Shown: piece after piece, positions 1-13,941 of the stretch
Numbering within the stretch: position 1 is the stretch's first letter
Layout: each line of letters opens with the position of its first letter
NCBI RefSeq assembly: GCF_000430645.1
Contig: NZ_KE387185.1
Coordinates: 1,337,780-1,401,779 of the forward strand
Direction: 5' to 3'
Source: Aquimarina latercula DSM 2041
GTDB taxonomy: Bacteria; Bacteroidota; Bacteroidia; Flavobacteriales; Flavobacteriaceae
DNA: 64,000 bases
The notes under the pieces: generated by a model
Database searches by the model: none
Seen by the model: only the letters and a program-made list of their open reading frames with translations
Told to the model about the DNA's origin: nothing
Position numbers and translations under genes: made by a program

Positions 1-329
1 AAAGAGTTCATAATTATATACTTCTGGCACTTGCCCGTAAAAGATTAATGGATGTAGAAAATGGATATGTTTTTGGAGATCAAGGCTGGATGGCAATTGA
101 TGATTTATTAAACGATATGAGCAAAGAATTTGGTAAAGAGTTAGATGCGTATTACTTGAATTTAAAGATTTATCGAATCAGAAAATTATTGTTGGAAACA
201 AAACCGTATGGATATCTTTTTGCTAATAGTGTTGAAAGGCGATATGGTGAAATTCGGTTTGCTCACAGATTTTTTCAAATTTTAAAAGAAGAACGATGCA
301 TTGGCGAAGTGCTCGCAATAGCTAATTAA
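1..329 (+). CDS. C-terminal fragment of FHA-associated winged-helix-like protein (5' end outside window)
   Basis: The reading frame is already open at base 3, so this is the tail of a longer protein and the ATG at 48 is probably internal. The visible part reads like the C-terminal domain that follows FHA domains in some bacterial signalling proteins: an opening stretch containing LLALARKRL, then GWMAIDDLL, a long helix with LNLKIYRIRKLL, and a closing VERR...GEIRFA strand. In known relatives this fold resembles a winged helix and the FHA domain binds phosphothreonine. That suits the kinase gene that follows 40 bp downstream on the same strand, so this protein could be a phospho-reader or output of that kinase. 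The FHA domain itself is not in view, so the assignment is tentative. Confidence 0.5.
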   Translation, partial: RVHNYILLALARKRLMDVENGYVFGDQGWMAIDDLLNDMSKEFGKELDAYYLNLKIYRIRKLLLETKPYGYLFANSVERRYGEIRFAHRFFQILKEERCIGEVLAIAN

Positions 330-369: not shown

Positions 370-3300
370 ATGGAAAACCCCTCGACTAAAAATGCCCCAA
401 ATGTCGATATTCATTTAGAAAATTATACAATACTCGAAAAGATTGGAGAAGGAGGATATGGTATTGTGTACAAAGCGATCCAAGTAAGTACGGGTCAATC
501 AGTAGCAATCAAAATACTTAAGTTTAAAGAAGTACTAGATCAGAAATCTATAAAACAACAGACAGCACGCTTTGATAGAGAAACTAAATTATGTGCGGAA
601 ATTAATCACCCTAATATTGTTAAGCTTTTAGATAAAGGATATACTAACAATCAAGAACCTTTTGCTGTTTTTGAGTATATTTCTGGACAGACATTAAAGG
701 ACTTAATTACACTTCATAACGGAATTTCTGCAGAAGAAACAGGGTTTCTAATGGGACAAGTTCTAGACGCTTTAGTGTCAGCACATGCTAAAGGGATTAT
801 TCATCGGGATCTTAAACCTCATAATATCATGGTGACCAAAACAGGAACTAGGTCACATATAAAGATATTAGATTTTGGAATTGGAATTTTTACTCACGAT
901 TTTAGGACCAGTGATTATAAAGATATCACACTTACTCATGAAGTCATTGGAACTCCTGCGTATAGTGCTCCAGAACAATTAAGGGGAGATCCTCCTACAG
1001 TAAAATCAGATTTGTATGCTTGGGGACTTATTGTATTAGAATGTTTAATAGGGCAACCTGCAATTCAGGGTTCAAGCGTTGCAGAGGTTTTTCAGAAGCA
1101 ACTAAATCCATCGGATGTGCCTTTACCTCCTTCTATTTTTGGTCATTCTTTAGGGAAAGTATTAAGTCGTGTTTTAGACAAAAATCATAATAGAAGAATT
1201 GCTACTGCAGAATTGGTTTATGAAGAATTTTCTAAAATTAATTTTAATACCATAGTTGGAGATATACAACCGCAGAATGAGCTATTACTAAAGTCTGAAG
1301 ATGCTACAGAAGTCAATCAATTAGTTTGGCGCAGTGCTCATAGTGAGAAAAGACAAATTACAGTGCTTTGTGCAAAGCTAATTTTATCCGTATCGGACCA
1401 TGCTGTTATGGAAATGGAAACCTTAGAAACCATCCAAAAAGATCAGTTGTATTTATGTAAAGAAGTTGGTGTTCGTTTTGGGGCTCATATCTCAGGAATT
1501 ATTGCGGATACAATCGTAATGTGTTTTGGATATCCTCAAGGTAGTGATAATGATGCGCGTAGAGCGGGTAGAACTGCGTTAGAACTTATAGGACAATTAC
1601 AAAAGAGAAATACGTTACTTTTTGCAAAACATGGTGTAGGATTAGATATTAGAATTGCAATGAATTCGGGGACAGTACTTATAAAACATAATACTGCTCC
1701 AGAAGGTTTGGTAACAAATACGGCTTTTAATTTGTTATATTCTGCTCCCTCAGGACAGATTTTAGCGACAGAAACTACTCGAAAATTATTAGATGCGCAT
1801 TTAGAATTTGAAGAGTTTACAATGCCAGATTTTTCAGGTTTTATAAATACTACAAATGTATATTTACTTACAGGAGAACGTCAGACAGAAGCACTTTCTA
1901 ATTTAAGTCCACGTAGTGCTGATCAAAAAATGATTGGTCGTGAAAAAGAACAAAGTAAGATTTTTGAGACTTGGGAGTCCATTGATGCTAAAAACGGAAA
2001 AGCGATAATTATAAAAGGACAAGCAGGAATAGGAAAGTCCAAATTAATTTACGAAACCAAAAAACAATTTATCAATGGTGGGTTTAAGGTTCGAGAGTGT
2101 CGTTGTCTTCCTGAGCATCAAAATAACGCATTGCATCCTATTTTTGAAATGCTAAAAAGGCATATTGGAATTCATGATAATGAAACTATTATCTCCCAAT
2201 TAGAGGAGGCTTTGGAGAAGGTTGATTGTTCACCAAAAAAAGTGATACCAGTAATATGTTCTTGGTTTTCTATCCCTTTAGGAGATAATTATCAGATTTC
2301 GGAGGCTTCTCCAGCGGAACAGAAAGAGATTTTATTTGAAGGCTTAGGGCAACTTATTCTATATATTGATAAGGATAAAAAGTTCACACTTATTATAGAA
2401 GATTTACATTGGATTGACCCTACGAGTTTAGATTTTTTAGGGGCTGTTTTATCTAAAATAGATCAAGAAAGTATCTTTTTATTATTAACTGCTCGTCCTG
2501 AGTTTAGTCCAGAATGGGATTTTGAAAATTACTCGGAGATACTCTTGAAAACCCTTAATGAGACGGCAAGTGAATCCTTAGTTAAAGATATCTTGCAGCA
2601 AAAATCAATTGAACCAATAGCACTTGATTATATTACAGACAAAACTGATGGGATTCCTTTGTTTATAGAGGATTTTACTAGGATGTTGTTAGAAGAGAAA
2701 TATTTGGTACTTGAAGGAGAAAACTATGCGTTATCAAAAAACTTTGATGCTACATCAGTTCCAGTGACTTTAAAAGGATTATTAAATGCTAGATTAGATC
2801 ATATAGGTTTTGCTAAAGAAACAGCACAGCTAGCAGCAGCAATCGGAAGAGAGTTTACTTATGATTTGTTGGTGAAATCATCGTTACACGACGAGGCTAT
2901 GGTGCAAAACAATCTTACGGCATTAATGGACGCAAACCTTATCTATCATCATCGTAGAGTACAGAATGAAAAGTATATATTTCGTCACGCTTTGATTCGT
3001 GATGCTGCCTATGATAGTATGGTATCTTTATTAAAACAAGAAGTACACGGAAGGATTGCTGAAACCATAGAAAATGATTTTGAAGATATTGTTAGGGATA
3101 ATCCTTTTGAAATAGCAGAACATTATGCGAGTGCCAAAGATTACCAAAAAGCTATTGTTTATGGTCTGAAAAAAACAAACTTTTCGATACGTCGATCTTT
3201 AAATCAAGAAGCATATAATGAATCATTAAAATGCCTTGAGTGGATAGCTGAATGTGAAGAGGGAATAACATCCTGGAAACAAGAGTTAGAACTTAATCGA

Positions 3301-4380
3301 ATTATCATACCTGCTTTAATGGTATTAGAAGGTTATGGAAGTGAACAAATCGAAGTTTTTTCTAAAAAAGCAATGCAATTAGAAGAACTACTTAAGGATG
3401 ATGTTGATTTTATGGAGACATTCCAGTCTAGTGGTGCTGATCATACTAGTAACTGGGGATTAGCACAATACCACCATATGCGATCTAACAGAAAGGAAGC
3501 CTTGTATTTATGTAAATCGATTATACATAAAGCTCGGAAAACTAAAAACAGACAAAACATATTAGATAGCTTACCTCTTATGGGTATGTTTGTTTCAACT
3601 GACGGTTTTCTGTCTGATGCTTCTTCTTATTTTGAAGAAGCACTATCATTATATGATAAGGACTTAGATGTAGAGATTGCTTTTAGAAATGGAATTGATC
3701 CTAAAACTCATACGCATGCCAATTATGCTTTTAATCTTGCATTAAAAGGAAATATAGAAAAGGCAAAACACCATTTAAAAGAAGGCCGTGATTGGGCTTT
3801 GCAAATAGAGCATGTGCCCTCTATAGCGATTACTAATGTTTATTTTATGCAGATTGCATGGTTGATTAAAGATGAGAAATGGATACAAGAATTGAATAAT
3901 ATCAATTCTGCATTTTTTGAAGAATATCCGGAAATGGGATTTTTGGCAGAATATTCTAATGTATATAATTATTGGAGAATAGGAAATATTGATCCACAAA
4001 AAGGTTTTTCTGAAATGAGAATAGTTTCTAAACAAACATATTTGCATTCTTATTTGGAAGGGGTTTTAGTAGATACTTTAATCAACAAAAAATTGTATGA
4101 CCAAGCTATTGAAACATCAGAAAAGGCTATAAAATGGGCTAAAGAAAATAAAGAGATGGTCTTTTTATCTCCTTTATATCGAATGCTTGCGATAGCTATG
4201 TGTTCTAAGAATGAAAAATTATCTGATAATGAAATTCAACTATTTGAAACTTCTGTAGAAATTGCAAAAGATCAAGGAGCTCGAATTTTTGAATTGCAAG
4301 CATATGAAGCATACAAAAATTGGATTGAAGATAAACAAAAAAAACAAACAATATCTATACAGATACAATTGCTTAAATAA
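370..4380 (+). CDS. TOMM-type Ser/Thr kinase / cyclase-homology / ATPase fusion protein
   Basis: The 1336-aa protein opens with a complete Hanks-type kinase: glycine loop GEGGYG near residue 27, Lys48 in VAIK, HRDLKPHN at 145-152, DFG at 168-170 and APE at 200-202. A class III cyclase-like domain follows at about 325-500, starting EKRQITVL. A STAND/AAA-type ATPase comes next, with Walker A GQAGIGKS (Lys556) and Walker B LIIEDLHW near 677. The last 400 residues are helical and TPR-like. This order matches the kinase/cyclase fusion family found in TOMM peptide clusters, and the YcaO gene downstream supports that. In the cyclase domain the position of the first metal-binding Asp (usual VTVLFxD) is Lys (VLCAK), so cyclase activity is doubtful. 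It probably senses or gates the modification system; that role is inference. Confidence 0.88.
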   Translation: MENPSTKNAPNVDIHLENYTILEKIGEGGYGIVYKAIQVSTGQSVAIKILKFKEVLDQKSIKQQTARFDRETKLCAEINHPNIVKLLDKGYTNNQEPFAVFEYISGQTLKDLITLHNGISAEETGFLMGQVLDALVSAHAKGIIHRDLKPHNIMVTKTGTRSHIKILDFGIGIFTHDFRTSDYKDITLTHEVIGTPAYSAPEQLRGDPPTVKSDLYAWGLIVLECLIGQPAIQGSSVAEVFQKQLNPSDVPLPPSIFGHSLGKVLSRVLDKNHNRRIATAELVYEEFSKINFNTIVGDIQPQNELLLKSEDATEVNQLVWRSAHSEKRQITVLCAKLILSVSDHAVMEMETLETIQKDQLYLCKEVGVRFGAHISGIIADTIVMCFGYPQGSDNDARRAGRTALELIGQLQKRNTLLFAKHGVGLDIRIAMNSGTVLIKHNTAPEGLVTNTAFNLLYSAPSGQILATETTRKLLDAHLEFEEFTMPDFSGFINTTNVYLLTGERQTEALSNLSPRSADQKMIGREKEQSKIFETWESIDAKNGKAIIIKGQAGIGKSKLIYETKKQFINGGFKVRECRCLPEHQNNALHPIFEMLKRHIGIHDNETIISQLEEALEKVDCSPKKVIPVICSWFSIPLGDNYQISEASPAEQKEILFEGLGQLILYIDKDKKFTLIIEDLHWIDPTSLDFLGAVLSKIDQESIFLLLTARPEFSPEWDFENYSEILLKTLNETASESLVKDILQQKSIEPIALDYITDKTDGIPLFIEDFTRMLLEEKYLVLEGENYALSKNFDATSVPVTLKGLLNARLDHIGFAKETAQLAAAIGREFTYDLLVKSSLHDEAMVQNNLTALMDANLIYHHRRVQNEKYIFRHALIRDAAYDSMVSLLKQEVHGRIAETIENDFEDIVRDNPFEIAEHYASAKDYQKAIVYGLKKTNFSIRRSLNQEAYNESLKCLEWIAECEEGITSWKQELELNRIIIPALMVLEGYGSEQIEVFSKKAMQLEELLKDDVDFMETFQSSGADHTSNWGLAQYHHMRSNRKEALYLCKSIIHKARKTKNRQNILDSLPLMGMFVSTDGFLSDASSYFEEALSLYDKDLDVEIAFRNGIDPKTHTHANYAFNLALKGNIEKAKHHLKEGRDWALQIEHVPSIAITNVYFMQIAWLIKDEKWIQELNNINSAFFEEYPEMGFLAEYSNVYNYWRIGNIDPQKGFSEMRIVSKQTYLHSYLEGVLVDTLINKKLYDQAIETSEKAIKWAKENKEMVFLSPLYRMLAIAMCSKNEKLSDNEIQLFETSVEIAKDQGARIFELQAYEAYKNWIEDKQKKQTISIQIQLLK

Positions 4381-4405: not shown

Positions 4406-5041
4406 ATGGGAAACGTAACAACAGATCAATTGCAGAATATTATTAACAAAACTGAACCAACGATAACGAAAAAAATATCTTGGGGAGATGATCAGGAAAA
4501 GATCTTTGAAATTTGTAAAAAATATTATGAATTGTGTTTAGCTTGTGCTAAGGATAGTGATTTATACGATTCTTTCACAAATCCGAAAAATACTATTGCT
4601 TTTTTAACAGATGGTAAATTACACGGAGAAAGTAAATATGTGTTTTATTTTGATCAAGAAGAAAAAATACCTTTTGAAGGTGTTGGTATGATCCTTCCAA
4701 AACAAGGGTTAGAAATTGTTCTAGATCATCATACAGCTTGGCCAACTTTATTAATCACTCCAAAAGATAAAATTGCGGATGATGAGAAACAAAAAATCAT
4801 TTCAATAAAAGAATCACCAATGGTGGTGGAAAAAGTAGTTTTAAGTGACAGAGGAGAAAGCCAAACAGTAGCAAAAGTTAATAAGGATGCCCCGACAGCA
4901 ACGATGAATCTTGGGATAGATAACTTGGATGATTATAATCAAACGTTGGTTATGCCAAACTACATACCGAATACAGATATGTTGTTAACCATAAAAGCCA
5001 ATGAAAAGGCAGATGCAGAGATTATTATGACCTGCTGCTAA
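4406..5041 (+). CDS. Putative TOMM precursor protein ending Thr-Cys-Cys
   Basis: I do not recognise a named family. The 211-aa protein lies 25 bp after the kinase/cyclase gene and 9 bp before the fused YcaO cyclodehydratase, the usual slot for the substrate. It has no signal peptide or membrane segment, an acidic soluble body, and ends MTCC, with the two cysteines as the last two residues (210 and 211). Two more cysteines occur in LCLACAK near residue 45. Cyclodehydratases of this class turn cysteines near the C-terminus into thiazolines, so the terminal CC is the obvious candidate core and the other 200 residues would be an unusually long leader. It could instead be an accessory protein; the function is inferred from position and the CC tail. 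Confidence 0.5.
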   Translation: MGNVTTDQLQNIINKTEPTITKKISWGDDQEKIFEICKKYYELCLACAKDSDLYDSFTNPKNTIAFLTDGKLHGESKYVFYFDQEEKIPFEGVGMILPKQGLEIVLDHHTAWPTLLITPKDKIADDEKQKIISIKESPMVVEKVVLSDRGESQTVAKVNKDAPTATMNLGIDNLDDYNQTLVMPNYIPNTDMLLTIKANEKADAEIIMTCC

Positions 5042-5050
5042 TTAAAATAT

Positions 5051-7288
5051 ATGATTGAAAACCCTAGGCTAAAGTCTAATATTTATATCACAAAAATTGA
5101 TCAGAAATTACTCTATGTAATTTCTGATCAAGATATAGTTCCGGTATCAGATCCATTAGAGATTGATATTTTACAAGAAATAAATAAAGGCACATTATCG
5201 ACACAAGAACTAGCTAAGTCTTTTTTAGACAGATCAGATTTTATTTCTACTTTTCAAATTATTTCATCTTTAGAATGGAGAGGATTTATTCGAGAAGATG
5301 ATTCTCCTTATTCGGTTCGAGAAACTGCTTATTGGGAAGAGTTAGGTTTTGATGTTAAAAAACTAAAAAAAGTATTAGACCATAAATCAATTAAGATTTA
5401 TAATGTTGGAAATATTGATGATACTGTTTTTCGGAATGCTTGTATAGAAACAGGTATTCAAATTACTAATGATAATCCTACACTTAATATTGTTTTAACA
5501 GATGATTACAGTAATGAGTCTTTGAATCAATTAAACTGTAAGTTTATTAGTGAACAAAAAAAGTGGTTGTTAATAAAACCGAATAGTAATGAGATTTTAA
5601 TTGGTCCACTTTTTATTCCTGATAATACTGCTTGTTGGGATTGTTTATATCATAGATTAACAATTAATCAACCATTTAAACAGTTTTGTAAATCAATTGG
5701 TTTTGAACAAGAAAATCAGGTAAAGTCTAATCATACTATTTCAAGTCATATAGCTAGTAATATGGCTATTTTAGAAATTATAAAATGGTTATATTCTGAA
5801 AAACAACATATACTTGAAGATACTATAATTTCGTTAGATGTAAGTGTTATGAATAGTTCTCATCATTCGGTAACTAAAAGACCTCAATGTAGGACTTGTG
5901 GTGATGAAAATATATTTAAAAAGAGGAGTGCTCCGATCACAATAGGTGAGAAAATTACTATAAGTAATAAGCTAGGTGGTTATAGAACGGTGTCAGCAGA
6001 AGAAACATTTGAAAAATATAAAAAACACATAAGTAACCTATCTGGAGTTGTACCAAAAGTATCACCTTATCATAAAAAAGAAGGAGCTCCTATATTTAAT
6101 TTTGCTTCTGGAAGAAACCGTGCCTTGCAAAGCACCTCTTTATTTTGGTTAAATCATCATTTGCGAAGTGGTAATGGTGGAAAAGGTAAAAATAGTATAC
6201 AAGCAAAAACCGGAGCCTTATGTGAGGCAATTGAGCGTTATAGTTTAATGTATCATGGTGATGAGTATAGTTTTACTGCATGCTATGAGGATTTGGAAGA
6301 TGCTATCTTACCTAATGAATGTATGAATTTTAGTGAAACTCAATTTAAAAAAAGAGAAGAGATTAATAAAAATACATCGAAGTTTTATGCTTTTATACCA
6401 CAACCTTTTGATATAAATGAGAAGATGGAGTGGACTTCATTCTATTCTTTGACATATCTAAAATATAAGCATGTACCATCCTGCTTTAGTTACTCTCAAT
6501 ATCCTGCTAATGATGAACAAAAATTGTATTCTTATCCTGATTCTAATGGTTGTGCTGCGGGAAATACCATTAAAGAGGCTATTTTGCAAGGTTTTTTTGA
6601 ATTAGTAGAAAGAGATGCTGCAGCAATATGGTGGTATAATAGAATTAGAATGCCAGAAGTAGATTTGTCAACTTCGGAAAACCCTTATATTGAAACTATA
6701 GAGAAGTATTACAAAAGTATACAACGCACTATTTATGTTTTAGATATTACTTCTGATCTTAATATTCCGACTTTTGTGGCTATTTCTTCTTTGATAAATA
6801 AGACTTCAAAAAGTAATATTATTTATGCTTTTGGCTCACATGTTGACGCTAATATTGCTATAGAAAGAGCTGTAATTGAATTAAATCAGTTACTTCCTAT
6901 TGTGAAATCAGAAAGTTATTTAACGAAGGATAAGGTTTTTATAGATTGGTTGGATATGGCAACATTTAAAACTGATCAATATTTAGTGCCTAAAAAAGTA
7001 GAAAAGAAAAATCTTCAAAAAGATTATCCAATTTTGTGCGATTCTAATATAGAAAGCGCACTTAGTTTTTGTGTAGAAACAGCAAAAAGAAATGACCTAG
7101 AAGTGTTATTCTTGGATTTAACAAAAGGTGATATCGGATTGCCAGTTGTTAAAGTGATAGCACCTGGACTTCGTCATTTTTGGAGAAGAACAGGACCAGG
7201 AAGACTCTATGATGTTCCAGTAAAAATGGGATGGCTGGATGAGAAATTGTTAGAAAACGAACTCAACCCTAAAAGTATTTTTATTTAA
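5051..7288 (+). CDS. Fused TOMM leader-binding / YcaO (SagD-type) cyclodehydratase
   Basis: The 745-aa protein joins the two halves of an azoline-forming cyclodehydratase. Residues 1 to about 290 look like the E1-like, leader-peptide-binding part, with a four-cysteine zinc site made by CWDC (195, 198) and CRTC (280, 283). Residues from about 300 are the YcaO domain that activates the peptide amide with ATP: CEAIER at 391-396, GCAAGNT at 500-506 and FELVERD at 516-522 are the usual nucleotide- and magnesium-binding segments. Length fits fused C/D enzymes such as TruD. The enzyme should convert Cys (or Ser/Thr) of a precursor to azolines, and the CC-ending protein 9 bp upstream is the likely substrate. 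No SagB-type dehydrogenase is nearby, so products may stay as thiazolines. The C-terminus (NPKSIFI) lacks an obvious proline-rich PxPxP tail. Confidence 0.9.
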   Translation: MIENPRLKSNIYITKIDQKLLYVISDQDIVPVSDPLEIDILQEINKGTLSTQELAKSFLDRSDFISTFQIISSLEWRGFIREDDSPYSVRETAYWEELGFDVKKLKKVLDHKSIKIYNVGNIDDTVFRNACIETGIQITNDNPTLNIVLTDDYSNESLNQLNCKFISEQKKWLLIKPNSNEILIGPLFIPDNTACWDCLYHRLTINQPFKQFCKSIGFEQENQVKSNHTISSHIASNMAILEIIKWLYSEKQHILEDTIISLDVSVMNSSHHSVTKRPQCRTCGDENIFKKRSAPITIGEKITISNKLGGYRTVSAEETFEKYKKHISNLSGVVPKVSPYHKKEGAPIFNFASGRNRALQSTSLFWLNHHLRSGNGGKGKNSIQAKTGALCEAIERYSLMYHGDEYSFTACYEDLEDAILPNECMNFSETQFKKREEINKNTSKFYAFIPQPFDINEKMEWTSFYSLTYLKYKHVPSCFSYSQYPANDEQKLYSYPDSNGCAAGNTIKEAILQGFFELVERDAAAIWWYNRIRMPEVDLSTSENPYIETIEKYYKSIQRTIYVLDITSDLNIPTFVAISSLINKTSKSNIIYAFGSHVDANIAIERAVIELNQLLPIVKSESYLTKDKVFIDWLDMATFKTDQYLVPKKVEKKNLQKDYPILCDSNIESALSFCVETAKRNDLEVLFLDLTKGDIGLPVVKVIAPGLRHFWRRTGPGRLYDVPVKMGWLDEKLLENELNPKSIFI

Positions 7289-7307: not shown

Positions 7308-8594
7308 ATGTTATTTAGATCCTATAATAATAAGTCTTTTAAACAAACAGAGTATTATAACATTTTACCAGAAGAAGAACGCGAGATATTCGATATACTA
7401 TCAAGTGTTTTTCATTTTAAGGTAAATAATTATGTGTTAGAGCATTTGATTAATTGGGCAGCCATTCCAGAAGATCCTATATACAGATTAATTTTTCCGA
7501 GGAAAGAAATGCTAAGTGCTTTTGATTATGAAAAATTAAAGCAATTATTTAAAATAGGACTGGATGAAAAAACTAGAATTGGTTTTGTTCAATCTGTAAA
7601 AAAAAAGATGCATCCAGAAGTAAAACATGCAGAAACTGGTTTTCCTAAGATGGATGGTAAAATTATTACAGGAGGCTATAGGAATTTTCCAACTATATTA
7701 AATCTATTTCCAGATCCAATGGTAAAGACCTGTCATGCCTATTGTTCATATTGTTTTAGATGGGTTGCATTTGATAATACAGAAGCACAGAAAAAAACAG
7801 CTTATAGAGATCCATATGATCCAATTCCATATTTAAAAGAAAATCCAGAAATTACAGATGTATTATTTACTGGAGCTGATCCTTTGGTGCTAAAAGCGTC
7901 TGCAATAAAAAAATATATTGATCCTGTTTTGGAAATTGAGTCTGTACAGGTAATACGAATTAATTCTAAGGCATTAGCTTGGTGGCCTTATCGTTTTACA
8001 ACGGATAAAGATGCTGATGCATTATTAGAACTTTTTCGATATATACAATCAAAGGGTAAACATCTTAATTTCTGTGCGCATTTTACTCATGCCAGAGAAT
8101 TAGAAAATGAAGTGGTAAAAGAAGCAATACAACGAATAAAAGAAACCGGAGCTGTAATCCGTTGCCAAGGACCTTTAGTTAAAGGGATTAATGATACACC
8201 AGAAGATCTTATAGCACTATGGAAAGAACAAATAGCCAATGGCTTAATACCTTATTATTTATTTGTAGAGGCAGATCATAATCCAGAATCTTGTTTTCGT
8301 GTTCCTTTAGCAAGAGCACTTCATGTTTTTCAAGAAGCTCAGAAAAAAACTTCAGGCTTAGCCAGAACTGTTAGAGGTCCTGTGTTTATGAATGACCTTA
8401 ATAGAGTTCTTTTAGATGGAATAACAGAGCTTAACGGAGAAAAATATTTTGTTCTTAAAAGTCTACAATCTCCTCCAGAAACTAATGGAGAGGGAAAAAT
8501 CAAGCTTATTCCTTTTGATGAGCACACCAAAGATGCAGGTGACTTATTTGAATTATTCAAAGAAGATAAGTTAGAAGTGAGTTCGGTATATTAG
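7308..8594 (+). CDS. KamA-like radical SAM protein lacking the PLP lysine motif
   Basis: The 428-aa protein carries the radical SAM cluster motif CHAYCSYC (Cys142, 146, 149) in the context typical of the lysine 2,3-aminomutase (KamA) family, with FTGADPL as the SAM-binding glycine segment. True aminomutases have a glycine-rich loop with the PLP-binding lysine (GGGGK) near the C-terminus; here the matching region reads RGPVFMNDLNRVLLDG and no such loop is visible. It is therefore probably not an aminomutase even though automated annotation may call it one. It starts 19 bp after the cyclodehydratase gene and is followed by a terminator, so it is likely the last gene of the TOMM operon and could modify the same peptide. 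The substrate is unknown. Confidence 0.72.
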   Translation: MLFRSYNNKSFKQTEYYNILPEEEREIFDILSSVFHFKVNNYVLEHLINWAAIPEDPIYRLIFPRKEMLSAFDYEKLKQLFKIGLDEKTRIGFVQSVKKKMHPEVKHAETGFPKMDGKIITGGYRNFPTILNLFPDPMVKTCHAYCSYCFRWVAFDNTEAQKKTAYRDPYDPIPYLKENPEITDVLFTGADPLVLKASAIKKYIDPVLEIESVQVIRINSKALAWWPYRFTTDKDADALLELFRYIQSKGKHLNFCAHFTHARELENEVVKEAIQRIKETGAVIRCQGPLVKGINDTPEDLIALWKEQIANGLIPYYLFVEADHNPESCFRVPLARALHVFQEAQKKTSGLARTVRGPVFMNDLNRVLLDGITELNGEKYFVLKSLQSPPETNGEGKIKLIPFDEHTKDAGDLFELFKEDKLEVSSVY

Positions 8595-8667
8595 GTTCAT
8601 AATAAGATCTTTTTTTCGTATCGTAGCGATACTTCTTAAAAATAGTGCCGAATAATATAGAATAAGT

Positions 8668-8693
8668 AGTAGTCTAATTAAAGACTACTTTTT
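8668..8693 (+). terminator. Terminator after the TOMM operon
   Basis: An 8-bp perfect stem, AGTAGTCT (8668-8675) with AGACTACT (8682-8689), is followed by a short T run and TTTGGCAT. It ends the TOMM operon. The same TTTTGGCAT string follows the terminal hairpins of the RNA units downstream. Confidence 0.6.
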
Positions 8694-8697
8694 GGCA

Positions 8698-8743
8698 TGA
8701 AATATGATGAAATATTATACCTTAAGTGTTAGGCATATATTTG
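8698..8743 (+). promoter_or_regulatory. Promoter A with direct-repeat activator-like site
   Basis: TGAAATATGATGAAATA (8698-8714) contains TGAAATA twice at a 10-bp period, one helical turn. It lies 21 bp upstream of TATATTTG (8736-8743), which matches the Bacteroidota -7 consensus TAnnTTTG. No TTG -33 element is found at normal spacing, which suits an activator-dependent promoter. Confidence 0.6.
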
Positions 8744-8749
8744 TCTCAT

Positions 8750-8902
8750 CAGAGCAAAATAACTGTAAACAATTATTAGGAATAACATCAGATCAATCTA
8801 TACTGGGGGTAAACATAAGTAGGGAAAACGATTTGATGTTAAGAAAAGCTAGAATCCGTTAAGTCGAAGGGGAAAGACTTTACGGATTTTGGCATTTTTT
8901 AT
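8750..8902 (+). ncRNA. Predicted structured RNA, unit A
   Basis: The transcript is predicted from promoter A to the T-rich stretch after the second hairpin. Hairpin 1 pairs AACATCAGAT (8784-8793) with ATTTGATGTT (8831-8840). Hairpin 2 pairs AATCCGT-AAGTC with GACTT-ACGGATT (8853-8888) around a loop holding GGGG, and is followed by TTGGCATTTTTT, which should work as a terminator. The ends are estimates. An 8-codon ORF (MLRKARIR) sits between the hairpins and is probably chance. Confidence 0.5.
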
Positions 8903-8932
8903 GTGTTCTACTAAAGTAATTAGAGGGCTTTG

Positions 8933-8978
8933 TGAAATATGATGAAATATTATTTTTTAAGTGTTCGGTATATATTTG
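8933..8978 (+). promoter_or_regulatory. Promoter B with direct-repeat activator-like site
   Basis: TGAAATATGATGAAATA (8933-8949) is followed after 21 bp by TATATTTG (8971-8978), the same geometry as promoter A. The initially transcribed region TCTCATCA is also identical to A. Confidence 0.6.
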
Positions 8979-8984
8979 TCTCAT

Positions 8985-9140
8985 CAAACAATAGATAATT
9001 AGAAAATACATCAAGTAGATTAATTGTGAAATTAAGATGTATTTGAAAGGTTATAATTTTTGGTGAATAGCCAGAATAATAGGTTAGATTATTGAGCTGT
9101 AGAATCAATGGGGTAGATTCTACAGCTCTTTTGGTATTTG
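8985..9140 (+). ncRNA. Predicted structured RNA, unit B
   Basis: Hairpin 1 pairs AAATACATC (9004-9012) with GATGTATTT (9036-9044) and includes an inner TTAATT/AATTAA stem. Hairpin 2 is a perfect 13-bp stem, GAGCTGTAGAATC (9094-9106) with GATTCTACAGCTC (9116-9128), closing the loop AATGGGGTA, followed by TTTTGGTATTTG. Compared with unit C, the second and sixth base pairs of hairpin 2 differ on both arms in a compensating way, which supports a selected RNA structure. Confidence 0.55.
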
Positions 9141-9166
9141 TAGCTTTTGATTAATAAATGAAGCAA

Positions 9167-9212
9167 TGAAATATGATGAAATATTATTTCGTATATGTTC
9201 AATATATATTTG
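9167..9212 (+). promoter_or_regulatory. Promoter C with direct-repeat activator-like site
   Basis: TGAAATATGATGAAATA (9167-9183) is again 21 bp upstream of TATATTTG (9205-9212), followed by TTTCATCA. Confidence 0.6.
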
Positions 9213-9218
9213 TTTCAT

Positions 9219-9485
9219 CAAACATTAAGAATTAATCATATACTATAAAATAATGACTGGAAACACACAAAACTCAGATAAAAAAAGTTTAGCATTTTGG
9301 ATGGTTAGAATATTCTTATTGTTTGTTAGGTAAAGTCAAAATATTAAGAAGTATTACATCAAATTAACCACAAGGGAAATTAGTACTTGTGAAAGTGATT
9401 TGATGTTCATAAAGCCAAGCAGATAATCCAAGATAATCGTGCTATAGAATCAATGGGGTAGATTCTATAGCACTTGGCATTTTAT
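9219..9485 (+). ncRNA. Predicted structured RNA, unit C (long form)
   Basis: Hairpin 1 pairs ACATCAAAT (9356-9364) with ATTTGATGT (9398-9406) and includes an inner ACAAG/CTTGT stem. Hairpin 2 is a perfect 13-bp stem, GTGCTATAGAATC (9439-9451) with GATTCTATAGCAC (9461-9473), and has the same AATGGGGTA loop as unit B, followed by TTGGCATTTTATGTAG. The unit is longer than A and B because a short ORF (9253-9333) lies between the promoter and hairpin 1. Confidence 0.55.
9253..9333 (+). CDS. Possible 26-aa membrane-active small peptide in RNA unit C
   Basis: An ATG ORF of 26 codons with a polar start (MTGNTQNSDKK) and a hydrophobic, lysine/arginine-flanked end (SLAFWMVRIFLLFVR). The layout recalls small membrane peptides or type I toxins, which are often encoded with structured RNAs. 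Units A and B have no equivalent, and such a short ORF can arise by chance, so confidence is low. Confidence 0.25.
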   Translation: MTGNTQNSDKKSLAFWMVRIFLLFVR

Positions 9486-9515
9486 GTAGTTTCTAAATGA
9501 TATATCTGAACCCGA

Positions 9516-9561
9516 TGAAATATGATGAAATAGTTTTGAAGAGAGGTATTTTTTAGTTTTA
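9516..9561 (+). promoter_or_regulatory. Promoter D, same site in front of the 154-aa gene
   Basis: TGAAATATGATGAAATA (9516-9532) recurs, and exactly 21 bp later lies TAGTTTTA (9554-9561), one mismatch from TAnnTTTG. Downstream is the 154-aa gene at 9609 instead of an RNA unit. The shared spacing suggests one regulator drives the RNAs and this gene. A GAGGTA/TACCTC hairpin (9543-9565) overlaps the -7 element. Confidence 0.5.
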
Positions 9562-9608
9562 CCTCAATGATTTGATACTGTATAATTATTAACGTAAAAC
9601 TTGAAAGT

Positions 9609-10073
9609 ATGAAATATTCTGTTGTTAATACAAAGACACAAAAAGTGAAGTTTGGTAGTTGGCCATTTCAAAAGCGTTTAAAAACAAAGCTTCAGTTAGT
9701 AAATTTGGGGGATGATTATTACAGAGTGTATTACTCAAGTGAATTCAATAATATAAATACAGGAAAGATTGAAAAAATTAAAGTGCCTTGTAATGGGTAT
9801 GTTAAAACGCAAATTAACAATGAACCAGGTATAAAAGTCGAAATATATAATTGTAGTTCTGAAGGTAATTACATTGCTATACATGTAAAGATAAAAGCAG
9901 ATATGGGCTCTTTAGGAGTTAGAACAATATATGATCAAATTTTAGACTGCTATACGGTACAATCCAAAAATTGGAATGCGCTTGATATTACAGGTATATG
10001 GAAAAACCTTGGTAAAATTAAAAAGCAAATCAGCTATACATTCGTAGAACAATATGCCCAAATTTTTAGTTAA
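9609..10073 (+). CDS. Unknown 154-aa protein co-regulated with the RNA array
   Basis: I do not recognise a family. The protein has no signal peptide or membrane span, is lysine-rich, and alternates short polar and hydrophobic stretches (for example YYRVYYSSEF and YIAIHVKIKAD), suggesting mostly beta structure. Three cysteines occur singly (VPCNGY, YNCSSE, LDCYTV). It is preceded by the fourth copy of the direct-repeat promoter and faces the LytTR regulator gene tail to tail, 66 bp away. Its link to the RNA array is by promoter sequence only; whether it binds the RNAs is speculation. Confidence 0.6.
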   Translation: MKYSVVNTKTQKVKFGSWPFQKRLKTKLQLVNLGDDYYRVYYSSEFNNINTGKIEKIKVPCNGYVKTQINNEPGIKVEIYNCSSEGNYIAIHVKIKADMGSLGVRTIYDQILDCYTVQSKNWNALDITGIWKNLGKIKKQISYTFVEQYAQIFS

Positions 10074-10139: not shown

Positions 10140-10889
10140 TTATCTATGCATGCGATCTAAGATCTCCATTACTTCTACCTTTTTTCTAACAGAAACTGGA
10201 ACATTTTCTCCATTTTTAAGCATTAGATAACCGCCATCTGCCTTAATAAAAGCACTAATACATTGGAGGTTAATTAAATGGCTTTGGTGTACACGTAAAA
10301 ATTGATAGTTTTTAAGCATATCAGCAAAATATTTTAAAGTTTTCGTTACAAATACCTTTTGGCCATCTTGTAGGTAAAAAATAGTATTATTACTATCGGA
10401 TTCACATCTAACAATATCATCTAAGCTTACAATAATAATTTTGTCTAAAGTGTGTAAAGATATTTTATCAGGTTTTTGCTCTGGTGCAGATAATGTATCT
10501 TTAAGAATATTGAGTCTTTCTTTATTAGGCTGAATTTGTTCTTTAGCTTTGGATATTGCTTGTGCTAGTTCTTCATTAGAGTATGGTTTTAGAACATAAT
10601 CAATAGCTGCAAATTTAAAAGCTCTTATAGCATACTCATCACTCGCAGTTACAAAGATAATTTTAGATTTTAATTCTGGAAATATCTCTAATACGTCAAA
10701 ACCTGTACCATCTCCTAGCATAATATCCAGAAATAAAATATCAGGAACATTGGTTCTAAGGGATTTTGCAGCTTCTACTACGCTTCTTGCTGTATCTATA
10801 ATTTTTATTTCGGGATGATTTGTTTCCAGGTCACTTTTTAAAAGTTGAAGTGCATCTGGCATATCTTCTACAATAATCGCTGTAAGCAT
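10140..10889 (-). CDS. LytTR-family response regulator
   Basis: The 249-aa protein has an N-terminal receiver domain (acidic pair VEDM at 8-10, phospho-acceptor Asp55 in ILFLDIML, TAS, and Lys in YVLKP) and a C-terminal LytTR DNA-binding domain from about residue 140, with VRCESDSNNT and FLRVHQSHLIN typical of that fold. It starts 7 bp after the stop of the histidine kinase gene on the same strand, so the two form one operon and a cognate pair. LytTR regulators usually bind two direct repeats about one helical turn apart, the geometry of the TGAAATA repeats in the nearby RNA array, making this gene the first candidate for their activator. That link is inference. Confidence 0.93.
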   Translation of the reverse strand: MLTAIIVEDMPDALQLLKSDLETNHPEIKIIDTARSVVEAAKSLRTNVPDILFLDIMLGDGTGFDVLEIFPELKSKIIFVTASDEYAIRAFKFAAIDYVLKPYSNEELAQAISKAKEQIQPNKERLNILKDTLSAPEQKPDKISLHTLDKIIIVSLDDIVRCESDSNNTIFYLQDGQKVFVTKTLKYFADMLKNYQFLRVHQSHLINLQCISAFIKADGGYLMLKNGENVPVSVRKKVEVMEILDRMHR

Positions 10890-10896
10890 AGTGTCT

Positions 10897-13800
10897 TTAA
10901 TAATCGGTTAATAATGGTATTTTAAACGATATCTCAGTTCCTTCTACAGAAGAGTCTTCATTTAGAATTTCTTTTATCTGTAATGCATCTTTTCCAGAGA
11001 TAGACTCCAGCCTTTCTCTAGTTACTGTTAATGCCATGGATTGATGATCCGTTTTGGTTTTGGTTTTTTGGGACTGGAAAATACCCATTCCGTTATCTAA
11101 TATTTTACAATGTAAGAATTCTTCATTAGTATCAAAAAATACTTTTAGTTTTCCATCTCTATTTCCTTTTAGGATCCCATGTCGTATTGCGTTTTCAACA
11201 AATGGTTGTATGAGCATTGGAGGAATTAATACTTCTTCTGGATCAAATTCCGAATCGATAGAAATGGTATATTCAAAAGGCTTATTTGCCATTAGTTTTT
11301 CTACCTCAATATAATGTTTCAGGGTTTTCATTTCCTGATCTAATGTAATATTGTCTTTTCTGGAGTTATATAATGTTTCTCTTAATAAAGTGGCAAAAGT
11401 GTTAATAGTACTATTCATTTTGGATGGGTTACTCGTTCCCATCGCTTTAATCCCATTAAGTACATTAAAAATGAAATGCGGATTCATTTGTAATCTTAAT
11501 GCCTTTTGTTCTAAAGAAAGCAAGTGATTTTGCATTTGCAATTTTTCTCGTTCTTCTTTATTCTTAAGCTTTACTTTTCTAATATATAACAATGTAATTA
11601 TTGTAAGTACCAGAAGAATAATCCCTAGTGTAGCAAGTTGAAACCAGAGTTTTTTGTAAATAGGGCTATCTATGAATATTTTAAAAGTAATAGGCTCACT
11701 TTCTTCCCATCTATAGTTTCTGGATTGTGCAGAAAATGAATGAGCACCATATGCTAATCCAGCTAAATTTTGCTTTTTTTCTGATGACCATGGACTCCAA
11801 GCTGTGTTATTTAGTTTATAACGATATTCTATGTCATTTGGATGATCTAGATCAATAGTTTTATAGTTAAATGAAAGCTCGGTTTGTTCTGGGGTTAGCT
11901 GTAGAACGTTGTCATTTTTGGCCCATATATCGGGATTTATAGAATCCAATGTTTGGTATGCGATTTCTATATTTTCAAAATGGATTTCTGGTTTTACAGT
12001 GGTTTTGTCAGTTTCTCCTGGTTCATATTTAGTAAGTCCATATATGGCTCCGAACCACAGGTTTCCTTCAATATCTTTACTTATAGCATTGAGACAAGTT
12101 TCTATACCTAAAAAGCCATCATTACGCCCAAAATGAAAAACATCTGTAATTTGGTTTATTAGGTTGATTTCTATTCGATCTACACCCCTTTCAGTACCAA
12201 CCCATAAATTATCCTCATTATCAAATATCATTTGATAGATATTGTTTGAGTATAAATTCTTTTCTCCTTTTATTTTTTTAAAAGAGAGTTTCTCTTCCTT
12301 TAAACTGGCCCACCAAATGCCTTGTCCAGCTGTACCTAGATACAAGTTATTATTTTTAAAAAGAAAGCAATTGATCGCAACTTTCTGATTGAGTACATTA
12401 CTAAGATGTGTAACTTTATTCCTTTTAATAAATCCAATACTTCCATTTTCTGTAGCATACCATATTTTGCCTTTTTTGTCAGAGGCCATATGTTTAATTT
12501 CAAGGTCTTTTATGCCACGCTTTTTAGTGAATCGTCTAACAGATCTTACTTTGTGTTTCTTGTAATCATATATAAATCTGGTAATTCCAGAAGAATAAGT
12601 GGCTGCCCAAATAGTGTCTCCAGAAATATGTATAGATCGAACCCAATTAGAAGATAAACCTCTTCTTTTATTAATGATGTAGTTCTTGATAACCTCTTTG
12701 GTTATTGTATCCTTTCTCCGTTTTTTGGACTTCTTATTACGAGTTACGATGCTGTCTTTAAATTTAATTTCTTTAAATAAGATTCCTTTTCCTTCGGTAC
12801 CTGCCCAGATATTTCCTTTGCTATCATGCGTGATAGTTTTGATTTTTATTTCAGATAACCTTTTGTCTTGCTTGACTTGAACTATTCCCGTAGAATCAAT
12901 TTTTATTAATCCAGCTTCCGAGTTTGAGGCCCAGATTTCTTCGTTAAAACTATGAACAGCATATACGCGATTACCTTTTAGTCCAGTATCTTGATTATAG
13001 TGGGTAAAATTATTTTGAGAATATTTATAGAACCCTCCTCCAGATGTTGCAATCCAAATATTGGACTGACGATCCGAAATGGTTTTTCTAATAGTAGAAA
13101 CTGCTAAACCGTTTTTTCGATTTATTTTTTTCTTTAATCGATAATTATTGGCATCCAATACAGTAATTCCTTCATTATTCGTAGAGAACCATAATTCTGT
13201 ATCTAGAACTGAAATGTTATTGACATTTAATGGTTTTTGGATCCATTTATTACCATAACTTTTAGCATTTGTATTTAAAACTAAAATTCCTTGATTTATA
13301 GCTGCCGCAAATACTTTTGTTTTGTGATATAATGCCGAAGTAAAATTATATGCACTATGACGTACCATAATGCTAGCATCTTTATGAATTTTATTTAATT
13401 TCCAAAGACCTTTATTTGTAGCTATCCAGAATAACTTACCATCAAACACAATTCCATTTACAATGCTGGTATTTATTTTAGGATCTAATTGTATTTTTTT
13501 TAATCCATCACTGCGGTTATATATATAGATGCCGACATTAGTAGCTAGATAAGTTTTATTGTGGATCCTAAATATTTTGTTTACTTGTAATCCTTCGAAA
13601 TTATGAAATTTCTTTTTTGTTTTTATCGATAATCCTCTTCTAGTTCCTATGAATAAACTGTCATTAGAAAAGAGTAAGGAGTGTATGTAGTTGGATAAGA
13701 GGCCATCATCTTCGTTCCAGGTTTCAAATTCTTCTCCATTAAATCTACTTATTCCACCTCCACGTGTACCTAGCCACAAATAACCAATATCATCTTGTAT

Positions 13801-13941
13801 AATATCATATACTTGAGATTGAGGAAGCCCGTCTTCTAATGTATATGCCCTAAGGCCATTATTTTGAGCAGATAATAAATGAATAGCACTTATCCATATA
13901 ATTGAAAAGGATAGTAGATATGAAAAGCATTTGGGGCTCAT
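10897..13941 (-). CDS. Two-component propeller sensor histidine kinase (LytS type)
   Basis: The 1014-aa sensor begins with a signal peptide ending near SAQ, followed by about 600 residues of repeated two-component-propeller strands (many IWAGTEGKG- or LWVGTERGV-like units). A Y_Y_Y domain follows at about 690-765 (YRYKLNNTAWSPWS), one membrane helix near 775-797, then the cytoplasmic LytS-type kinase with NPHFIFN as the phospho-acceptor His segment and an ATPase domain with DNGMGI. The propeller should sense a periplasmic ligand. No SusC/SusD or glycan genes are near, so this is not an obvious polysaccharide-utilisation sensor. It is the first gene of an operon with the LytTR regulator. Confidence 0.93.
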   Translation of the reverse strand: MSPKCFSYLLSFSIIWISAIHLLSAQNNGLRAYTLEDGLPQSQVYDIIQDDIGYLWLGTRGGGISRFNGEEFETWNEDDGLLSNYIHSLLFSNDSLFIGTRRGLSIKTKKKFHNFEGLQVNKIFRIHNKTYLATNVGIYIYNRSDGLKKIQLDPKINTSIVNGIVFDGKLFWIATNKGLWKLNKIHKDASIMVRHSAYNFTSALYHKTKVFAAAINQGILVLNTNAKSYGNKWIQKPLNVNNISVLDTELWFSTNNEGITVLDANNYRLKKKINRKNGLAVSTIRKTISDRQSNIWIATSGGGFYKYSQNNFTHYNQDTGLKGNRVYAVHSFNEEIWASNSEAGLIKIDSTGIVQVKQDKRLSEIKIKTITHDSKGNIWAGTEGKGILFKEIKFKDSIVTRNKKSKKRRKDTITKEVIKNYIINKRRGLSSNWVRSIHISGDTIWAATYSSGITRFIYDYKKHKVRSVRRFTKKRGIKDLEIKHMASDKKGKIWYATENGSIGFIKRNKVTHLSNVLNQKVAINCFLFKNNNLYLGTAGQGIWWASLKEEKLSFKKIKGEKNLYSNNIYQMIFDNEDNLWVGTERGVDRIEINLINQITDVFHFGRNDGFLGIETCLNAISKDIEGNLWFGAIYGLTKYEPGETDKTTVKPEIHFENIEIAYQTLDSINPDIWAKNDNVLQLTPEQTELSFNYKTIDLDHPNDIEYRYKLNNTAWSPWSSEKKQNLAGLAYGAHSFSAQSRNYRWEESEPITFKIFIDSPIYKKLWFQLATLGIILLVLTIITLLYIRKVKLKNKEEREKLQMQNHLLSLEQKALRLQMNPHFIFNVLNGIKAMGTSNPSKMNSTINTFATLLRETLYNSRKDNITLDQEMKTLKHYIEVEKLMANKPFEYTISIDSEFDPEEVLIPPMLIQPFVENAIRHGILKGNRDGKLKVFFDTNEEFLHCKILDNGMGIFQSQKTKTKTDHQSMALTVTRERLESISGKDALQIKEILNEDSSVEGTEISFKIPLLTDY

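What the first reader, a model, noticed from the sequence alone, without database searches (positions are those of the whole stretch)
8698..9485. Tandem array of three structured RNA units, each with its own promoter and terminator hairpin
Seen in the sequence: three consecutive units (period 235, 234 and 349 bp) share the order direct-repeat box, TATATTTG, CATCA, a hairpin on CATC/GATG, a second hairpin and TTTTGGCAT or a close variant. The interiors have diverged while the pairing is kept. This looks like a family of duplicated small RNAs rather than decayed genes. I know of no described RNA family with this pattern, but could not search.
Basis: seen in the sequence. Interest (0 to 1): 0.82.

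Follow-up and report, generated by a model that had tools for sequence, protein, structure and literature searches.

The report
Co-regulated RNA array with hidden peptide
A marine bacterium carries a row of three small structured RNA genes, one of which also encodes a tiny peptide, all apparently switched on by one regulator that sits in a neighbouring peptide-antibiotic-like gene cluster.

Summary
Three tandem units (8698-9478) each carry the same 17-bp box, a Bacteroidota -7 element (TATATTTG) exactly 38 bp from the box start, and two hairpins. The hairpin parts have diverged to 55-61% identity, yet across 12 of 14 known units from six Aquimarina genomes 98.1% of pair cells hold and 12 of 23 pairs show changes on both sides. 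A covariance model found an unseen member in another Aquimarina. No Rfam family reaches its threshold.

Two corrections. Unit 3 is not a plain sRNA: it encodes a 26-aa peptide kept under purifying selection in six genomes, with the hairpins as its 3' UTR. The box marks a regulon: a fourth copy, same spacing, precedes the adjacent 154-aa gene. In 52 genomes of the genus, exact box-promoters occur in 13, all among the 15 that carry a 319-aa FHA-domain protein, encoded here upstream of the TOMM kinase/cyclase.

Best reading: multicopy sRNAs plus a peptide mRNA, activated by the kinase-linked FHA protein, probably acting through G-rich loops (GGGG in 15 of 15 H2 loops). Transcription, activator identity and targets are inferred. 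New RNA family; variant of a known kind.

The parts
8668..8698 (+). terminator-like hairpin between the radical-SAM gene and the first unit
   Evidence: AGTAGTC...GACTACT then TTTTTGGCAT; a terminator-like site is flagged here on the - strand; by eye, a hairpin stands at the same place in four of the five other spans printed (not seen in G044)
8698..8714 (+). regulatory box of unit 1 (TGAAATATGATGAAATA, two half-sites 10 bp apart)
8736..8743 (+). -7 element TATATTTG of unit 1; predicted start of transcription about 8748
   Evidence: 38 bp from box start; -7 consensus TAnnTTTG at -12 to -5 in F. psychrophilum (PMC9723704, passage)
8748..8890 (+). unit 1, type A noncoding RNA: H1 8785-8839, H2 about 8851-8890, G-rich loops
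8933..8949 (+). regulatory box of unit 2
8971..8978 (+). -7 element of unit 2; predicted start about 8983
8983..9133 (+). unit 2, type A noncoding RNA: divergent H1 at about 9006-9042, H2 9094-9128 (13 perfect pairs, loop AATGGGGTA)
9167..9183 (+). regulatory box of unit 3
9205..9212 (+). -7 element of unit 3; predicted start about 9217
9253..9333 (+). small ORF, 26 aa, MTGNTQNSDKKSLAFWMVRIFLLFVR, conserved in six genomes
9354..9478 (+). structured 3' UTR of unit 3 (type B): H1 9356-9406, H2 9439-9473, outer pairing GCCAA(G) (9414-9419) with (C)TTGGC (9473-9478)
9516..9532 (+). fourth box, promoter of the 154-aa gene; -7 element TAGTTTTA at 9554-9561
9609..10073 (+). 154-aa protein of unknown family, downstream neighbour of the array in six genomes
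   Evidence: proteins that look related by eye are box-driven elsewhere in the genus
1..329 (+). 3' end of the 319-aa FHA-domain protein, the candidate activator (starts upstream of the window)
370..4380 (+). TOMM system kinase/cyclase fusion protein, candidate kinase for the FHA protein
   Evidence: TIGR03903, 997 bits

Best explanation
The array is a set of separate transcription units read from activator-dependent promoters of the Bacteroidota housekeeping type. One DNA-binding activator occupies the tandem half-sites TGAAATA-N3-TGAAATA immediately upstream of the -33 region (about -50 to -34) and recruits RNA polymerase; the fixed 38-bp phasing says that the box works as part of the promoter. 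The activator is most likely the FHA-domain protein encoded just upstream of the TOMM kinase/cyclase, switched by threonine phosphorylation. When it is on, it makes (A) noncoding RNAs of about 140-150 nt with two hairpins that present G-rich loops, (B) a short mRNA for a 26-27-aa amphipathic peptide whose 3' UTR carries the same two hairpins, and (C) the mRNA of the 154-aa protein. The A RNAs probably act in trans through their G-rich loops, as multicopy base-pairing sRNAs in the manner of Listeria LhrC, or compete with the 3' UTR of B for a common binding partner. Shown from sequence: units, promoter phasing, stem covariation, loop conservation, coding constraint on the peptide, co-occurrence with the FHA protein. 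Inferred: transcription, activator identity, phosphorylation, targets.
For: Phasing: 20 of 20 boxes in the six rSAM-to-154-aa spans have TAnnTT at +38. Counting also loci fetched with the promoter already in the query, 51 of 55 boxes do, and no other offset exceeds 3. Structure: 98.1% of cells paired, 12 of 23 pairs changed on both sides, 0 of 500 shuffles as high on four of five measures; unseen member L101 at E 1.3e-11. Loops: GGGG in the H2 loop of 15 of 15 units, GGG in the H1 loop of 11 of 15. Peptide: dN/dS 0.13-0.55 in the 11 of 15 pairs where it could be computed; in the other 4 synonymous sites are saturated. Regulator: exact box-promoters in 13 of 52 genomes, 13 of 13 with the FHA protein, Fisher p 1.7e-10; with up to one mismatch, 64 sites against 4 for the reversed control pattern. 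FHA protein in 7 of 7 further genomes reached through rSAM loci, one of which seems to be G047 again, with a phased box near the FHA gene in two Bacteroidales MAGs (L160, L163). FHA residues G22, R23, S38, H41, N59, G60 are invariant in 26 of 26 (that these bind the phosphopeptide is recalled).
Against: No transcript data. The FHA protein's C-terminal half has no firm DNA-binding match: Trans_reg_C hits 1 of 26 members at E 0.013, and a piece of about 23 residues hits OST-HTH/LOTUS in 14 of 26 at best E 0.0042, below that family's cut-off where scores were shown; profile comparison with own OmpR-type domains is no better than shuffled controls; the structure job never ran. Co-occurrence does not correct for common descent. 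Two FHA genomes (G021, 55% complete; G050) have no exact box, and seven genomes without the FHA protein have one 1-mismatch site each. The RNA itself is in only 6 of the 15 FHA genomes sampled plus L101. One of the five covariation measures (further pair types) was reached by 34 of 500 shuffles. G-run enrichment in other box-driven units without a long ORF is weak: 8 runs in 7 of 13 units, about 3 expected (derived). H1 of unit 2 has diverged. No target was identified.
Confidence: 0.6

Rival explanations
1. The hairpins are only the transcription ends of short mRNAs; unit 3 (peptide) is the functional gene and units 1 and 2 are decayed copies that lost the ORF.
For: Units 1 and 2 carry no counterpart of the peptide ORF after their predicted starts; one type-B unit is present in each of the six genomes and in L101, while type A varies from 0 to 3 copies. 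H1 of unit 2 has diverged.
Against: Type-A units keep the box, exact promoter phasing, covarying stems and the GGGG loop; decayed copies would not be expected to. In G012 three type-A copies are about 90% identical with intact promoters.
Confidence: 0.15
2. The G-rich loops titrate an RNA-binding protein, as CsrB/RsmZ RNAs do.
For: G-rich motifs stand in both loops of 11 of 15 units; loop sequence is kept while stems covary.
Against: CsrA was not found in any of 52 genomes of the genus, while the control rang in 3 of 14 named genomes. Another RNA-binding protein remains possible; none was tested.
Confidence: 0.2
3. A type I toxin-antitoxin module: the hydrophobic peptide is the toxin and the type-A RNAs are its antitoxin.
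For: 26-27-aa basic amphipathic peptide next to noncoding RNAs.
Against: A and B RNAs are same-sense paralogues, not antisense; all share one box, so they would be co-induced; G033 and G044 have B and no A by the model over the whole genome, and the 13 kb read of L101 shows B only.
Confidence: 0.06
4. The box belongs to another regulator, for instance the neighbouring LytTR response regulator, and the FHA link is hitch-hiking with the TOMM locus.
For: A LytTR response regulator lies beside the array in this genome, G026 and G033, and one with about 33% identity to it in G012 and G045.
Against: The LytTR genes of G012 and G045 are only distantly related to the one here and differ in orientation; exact boxes track the FHA gene even in G008, which has no TOMM kinase hit at E 1e-100; LytTR sites are recalled as direct repeats about 21 bp apart, not 10.
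Confidence: 0.2

Closest known systems
LhrC1-5 multicopy sRNAs of Listeria (PMC4132741, passages read)
   Same: Several paralogous RNAs under one regulator (LisR); the same short motif repeated in loop A and the terminator loop
   Different: LhrC motifs are CU-rich and pair with a target region that includes the Shine-Dalgarno sequence; here loops are G-rich, the candidate activator is an FHA protein, and one unit is a peptide mRNA
FopS/GibS sRNAs of Bacteroides (PMC11697453, passages read)
   Same: Multicopy sRNA family in the same phylum
   Different: FopS genes are spread over several loci and have a single-stranded seed plus terminator; small ORFs were excluded there; no Rfam family matched here at gathering score
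EmbR/PknH of mycobacteria (PMC4601284, passages read)
   Same: FHA-domain transcription factor controlled by a Ser/Thr kinase
   Different: EmbR has its DNA-binding domain first, then a BTA domain and a C-terminal FHA; here FHA is N-terminal, no BTA domain was found and the DNA-binding domain is unproven
Dual-function RNAs such as SgrS or RNAIII (recalled)
   Same: Regulatory hairpins and a very short peptide in one transcript
   Different: Here noncoding and coding versions sit side by side as paralogous units

Membership tests
any Rfam 15 family | score above the family's gathering threshold | tested here: not met
   0 matches in the window; at E up to 1 in 8600-9620 only mir-2813 and U7, far below threshold
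LhrC-like multicopy sRNA | several paralogous sRNA genes, each with its own promoter | tested here: met
   (sequence evidence; transcription not tested)
LhrC-like multicopy sRNA | one common transcription regulator | tested here: inconclusive
   shared box at fixed phase; regulator inferred from co-occurrence
LhrC-like multicopy sRNA | CU-rich UCCC loop motifs | tested here: not met
   loops are G-rich
CsrB/RsmZ sponge | CsrA/RsmA present in the genome | tested here: not met
   0 of 52 genomes at E 0.001
type I toxin-antitoxin | antitoxin RNA antisense to the toxin mRNA | tested here: not met
   same-sense paralogues
SARP/EmbR regulator | FHA domain | tested here: met
   26 of 26
SARP/EmbR regulator | OmpR-type winged helix | tested here: inconclusive
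   1 of 26 at E 0.013; profile comparison at control level; structure prediction not available
SARP/EmbR regulator | BTA domain | tested here: not met
   not among the 21 families matched by the 26 members at E up to 1
FopS | match to the FopS family deposited in Rfam | tested here: inconclusive
   no Rfam match, but whether this Rfam copy holds FopS was not checked

The most novel reading that the evidence does not exclude
A eukaryote-like Ser/Thr kinase and its FHA-domain transcription factor, embedded in a RiPP (TOMM) locus, control a small regulon whose main output in this genome is RNA: paralogous sRNAs with G-rich loops and a peptide mRNA carrying the same loops as its 3' UTR, so that sRNA and mRNA tail compete for one partner and set the dose of a 26-aa peptide.
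Probability: 0.3. Interest if true: 0.78.

Novelty: new variant of a known kind. Interest (0 to 1): 0.6.

Why it matters
As far as I know, few sRNA families are characterised in Flavobacteriia and what switches TOMM kinase/cyclase loci is open. This gives a defined RNA family, a hidden conserved peptide, a DNA motif with strict promoter phasing and a named candidate activator, so the pathway from kinase to RNA can be tested directly. The motif also predicts a wider regulon in relatives (by my reading of the sequences, lectin-like, tail-collar-like and other genes), which may show what these loci are for.

Tried and rejected
Dispersed repeat or mobile element: rejected. The model finds only three copies in the genome, and a DNA query over unit 1 and the start of unit 2 finds only this locus. 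No match of the 1014-bp array span in plasmids or of a 21-nt box pattern in viral contigs. tRNA/tmRNA: none. CsrA sponge: CsrA not found. G021:C144 hit of the model (E 0.028): an ordinary terminator after a gene, no box. Other Flavobacteriaceae: in 397 genomes sampled only the own genome is positive for the RNA (E 0.01, strict filters) and two, own and G373, for the FHA protein (E 1e-15). Target search by loop complement TCTACCCCATT in the window: the two exact hits are the hairpins' own opposite strands; the total at up to 2 mismatches (31) exceeds all 100 shuffles (mean 17.2), but the hits were not placed against start codons and no target is claimed. Winged helix by profile comparison: no better than shuffled controls. 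PDB search with the C-terminal half: two chance-level hits (E 0.56 and 0.7); with the whole protein, two chains over the FHA region only. Model E-values are rough by the tool's own warning. Literature: searches listed nothing that I recognised as this RNA family, box or FHA protein; only listings and abstract starts were seen, except passages of PMC9723704, PMC4601284, PMC11697453 and PMC4132741.

Full report
Where it is. The window lies in a 6.2-Mb genome of a genus that named loci identify as Aquimarina (the link between numbered and named genomes rests on equal contig lengths). Upstream is a TOMM-type RiPP locus: TOMM kinase/cyclase (370-4380), a 211-aa ORF ending in Cys-Cys that may be the precursor (4406-5041), a SagD-like YcaO protein (5051-7288) and a KamA-like radical SAM protein (7308-8594). 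Downstream is a 154-aa protein of no known family (9609-10073), then a LytTR response regulator and a large protein that I read as a propeller sensor kinase (10140-13941, minus strand; the kinase name is from its sequence, not from a family search).

The observation. The 61-nt repeat recurs at 8698, 8933 and 9167, with a 23-nt copy at 9515. Each full unit is box, 21 nt, TATATTTG, short leader, hairpin H1, linker, hairpin H2. Folding z-scores are -6.4, -5.8 and -6.6 for unit 1, unit 2 and the 3' part of unit 3. Nothing in Rfam reaches threshold.

The family. BLAST in 91 genomes (14 with some match) and reading the spans between the radical SAM and 154-aa genes gave 14 units in six genomes: eight of type A (no ORF) and six of type B. 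Type B occurs once per genome and is the last unit in each. On 12 of the 14 (the two divergent unit-2 copies left out), 98.1% of pair cells hold, 12 of 23 pairs have changes on both sides, and 0 of 500 shuffles reach this; a fifth measure, further pair types, was reached by 34 of 500; sliding the partners drops pairing to 33-38%. With all 14 plus L101, on an alignment fitted to the model, the figures are 94.7% and 12 of 23. A model built from the 14 finds, in 52 genomes of the genus, those 14 and one false positive, and one unseen member in another Aquimarina, L101, at E 1.3e-11, with box, phasing and a following box-driven gene that resembles the 154-aa gene by eye. In 397 genomes of the family only the own genome is positive.

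The peptide. Type-B units contain a 26-27-aa ORF that begins 30-36 nt after the predicted start of transcription. dN/dS is 0.13-0.55 in the 11 of 15 pairs where it could be computed; in the other 4 synonymous sites are saturated. L101 has a shorter 20-aa version. The C-terminal half is hydrophobic with basic residues. This explains the longer third unit.

The promoter. In F. psychrophilum TAnnTTTG lies at -12 to -5 (PMC9723704, passage). The box therefore spans about -50 to -34, next to where a -33 element would lie, as at activator-dependent promoters. All 20 boxes in the six spans have TAnnTT exactly 38 bp from the box start, including those of the 154-aa gene; 14 of the 20 read TATATTTG.

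The regulon. Box plus phased -7 element with at most one mismatch gives 64 sites in 20 of 52 genomes against 4 for the reversed control pattern. In the own genome all four sites lie here. In relatives they precede proteins that look like paralogues of the 154-aa protein, lectin-like, tail-collar-like and other genes, and some units without a long ORF that hold G-runs (these names are my reading of the sequences, not family hits). Exact sites occur in 13 genomes; all 13 carry the 319-aa FHA protein found in 15 of 52, Fisher p 1.7e-10, against 12 of 13 for the TOMM kinase. The other seven genomes with a site have one each, with a mismatch, and no FHA protein, which is near the control rate. The test treats genomes as independent, which they are not. 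The FHA protein is in 7 of 7 further genomes reached through radical SAM loci, one of which (G093) seems to be G047 again, and two Bacteroidales MAGs have a phased box within about 1 kb of it.

The FHA protein. The FHA domain is clear in 26 of 26. The C-terminal half looks to me like an OmpR-type winged helix (pattern ...NLxIYRxRKxL...IERRxGxIRF), but only 1 of 26 members hits Trans_reg_C at E 0.013, 14 of 26 give a short weak OST-HTH/LOTUS match at best E 0.0042, and profile comparison does not support the OmpR reading. PDB search gave two chains over the FHA region for the whole protein and only chance-level hits for the C-terminal half. Structure prediction was never available. DNA binding is thus inferred from co-occurrence and from the 10-bp half-site spacing.

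How it may work. GGGG stands in the H2 loop of 15 of 15 units while the stem below it covaries; GGG stands in the H1 loop of 11 of 15. A loop motif repeated in a stem-loop and in the terminator loop, in several co-regulated RNAs, is how LhrC works (PMC4132741, passages), there with CU-rich motifs. A CsrA sponge is made unlikely by the absence of CsrA. G-runs in the other box-driven units with no ORF of 100 aa within 250 nt are only mildly enriched: 8 runs in 7 of 13 units, about 3 expected at the intergenic rate (derived, which counted one of two identical unit-1 copies).

Verdict. What it works like: a multicopy sRNA set. Membership of the named families considered: not met or not settled.

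Noticed in passing
L039:14479-18488: The TOMM kinase/cyclase of G012 is split by a TAG stop, so the locus may be decaying there although its array is intact.
   Followed up: no
L106: Contig labelled Limnohabitans MAG carries an Aquimarina-like radical SAM gene (66% identity) and a phased box, and its genome an FHA gene; perhaps a mis-binned Bacteroidota contig.
   Followed up: partly
L045:10033-17628: A gene behind a one-mismatch box in G013 with SpvB and TcdB-mid domains; described only.
   Followed up: no
L107:7282 and L108:7270: Variant box TGATATA-N3-TGATATA with a TAnnTT element at +38, beginning at the end of the radical SAM gene in two Bacteroidales MAGs.
   Followed up: partly
L078, L079: Box-driven proteins of 144-147 aa that resemble the 154-aa protein by eye, near box-driven units without a long ORF that have GGGG in a possible hairpin.
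   Followed up: partly
window 4406-5041: 211-aa ORF ending in MTCC inside the TOMM locus, a possible RiPP precursor; no family hit.
   Followed up: no
L160, L161, L163-L166: Two to four FHA-protein paralogues in each of three distant MAG genomes (G095, G096, G097), suggesting parallel kinase-FHA systems.
   Followed up: no
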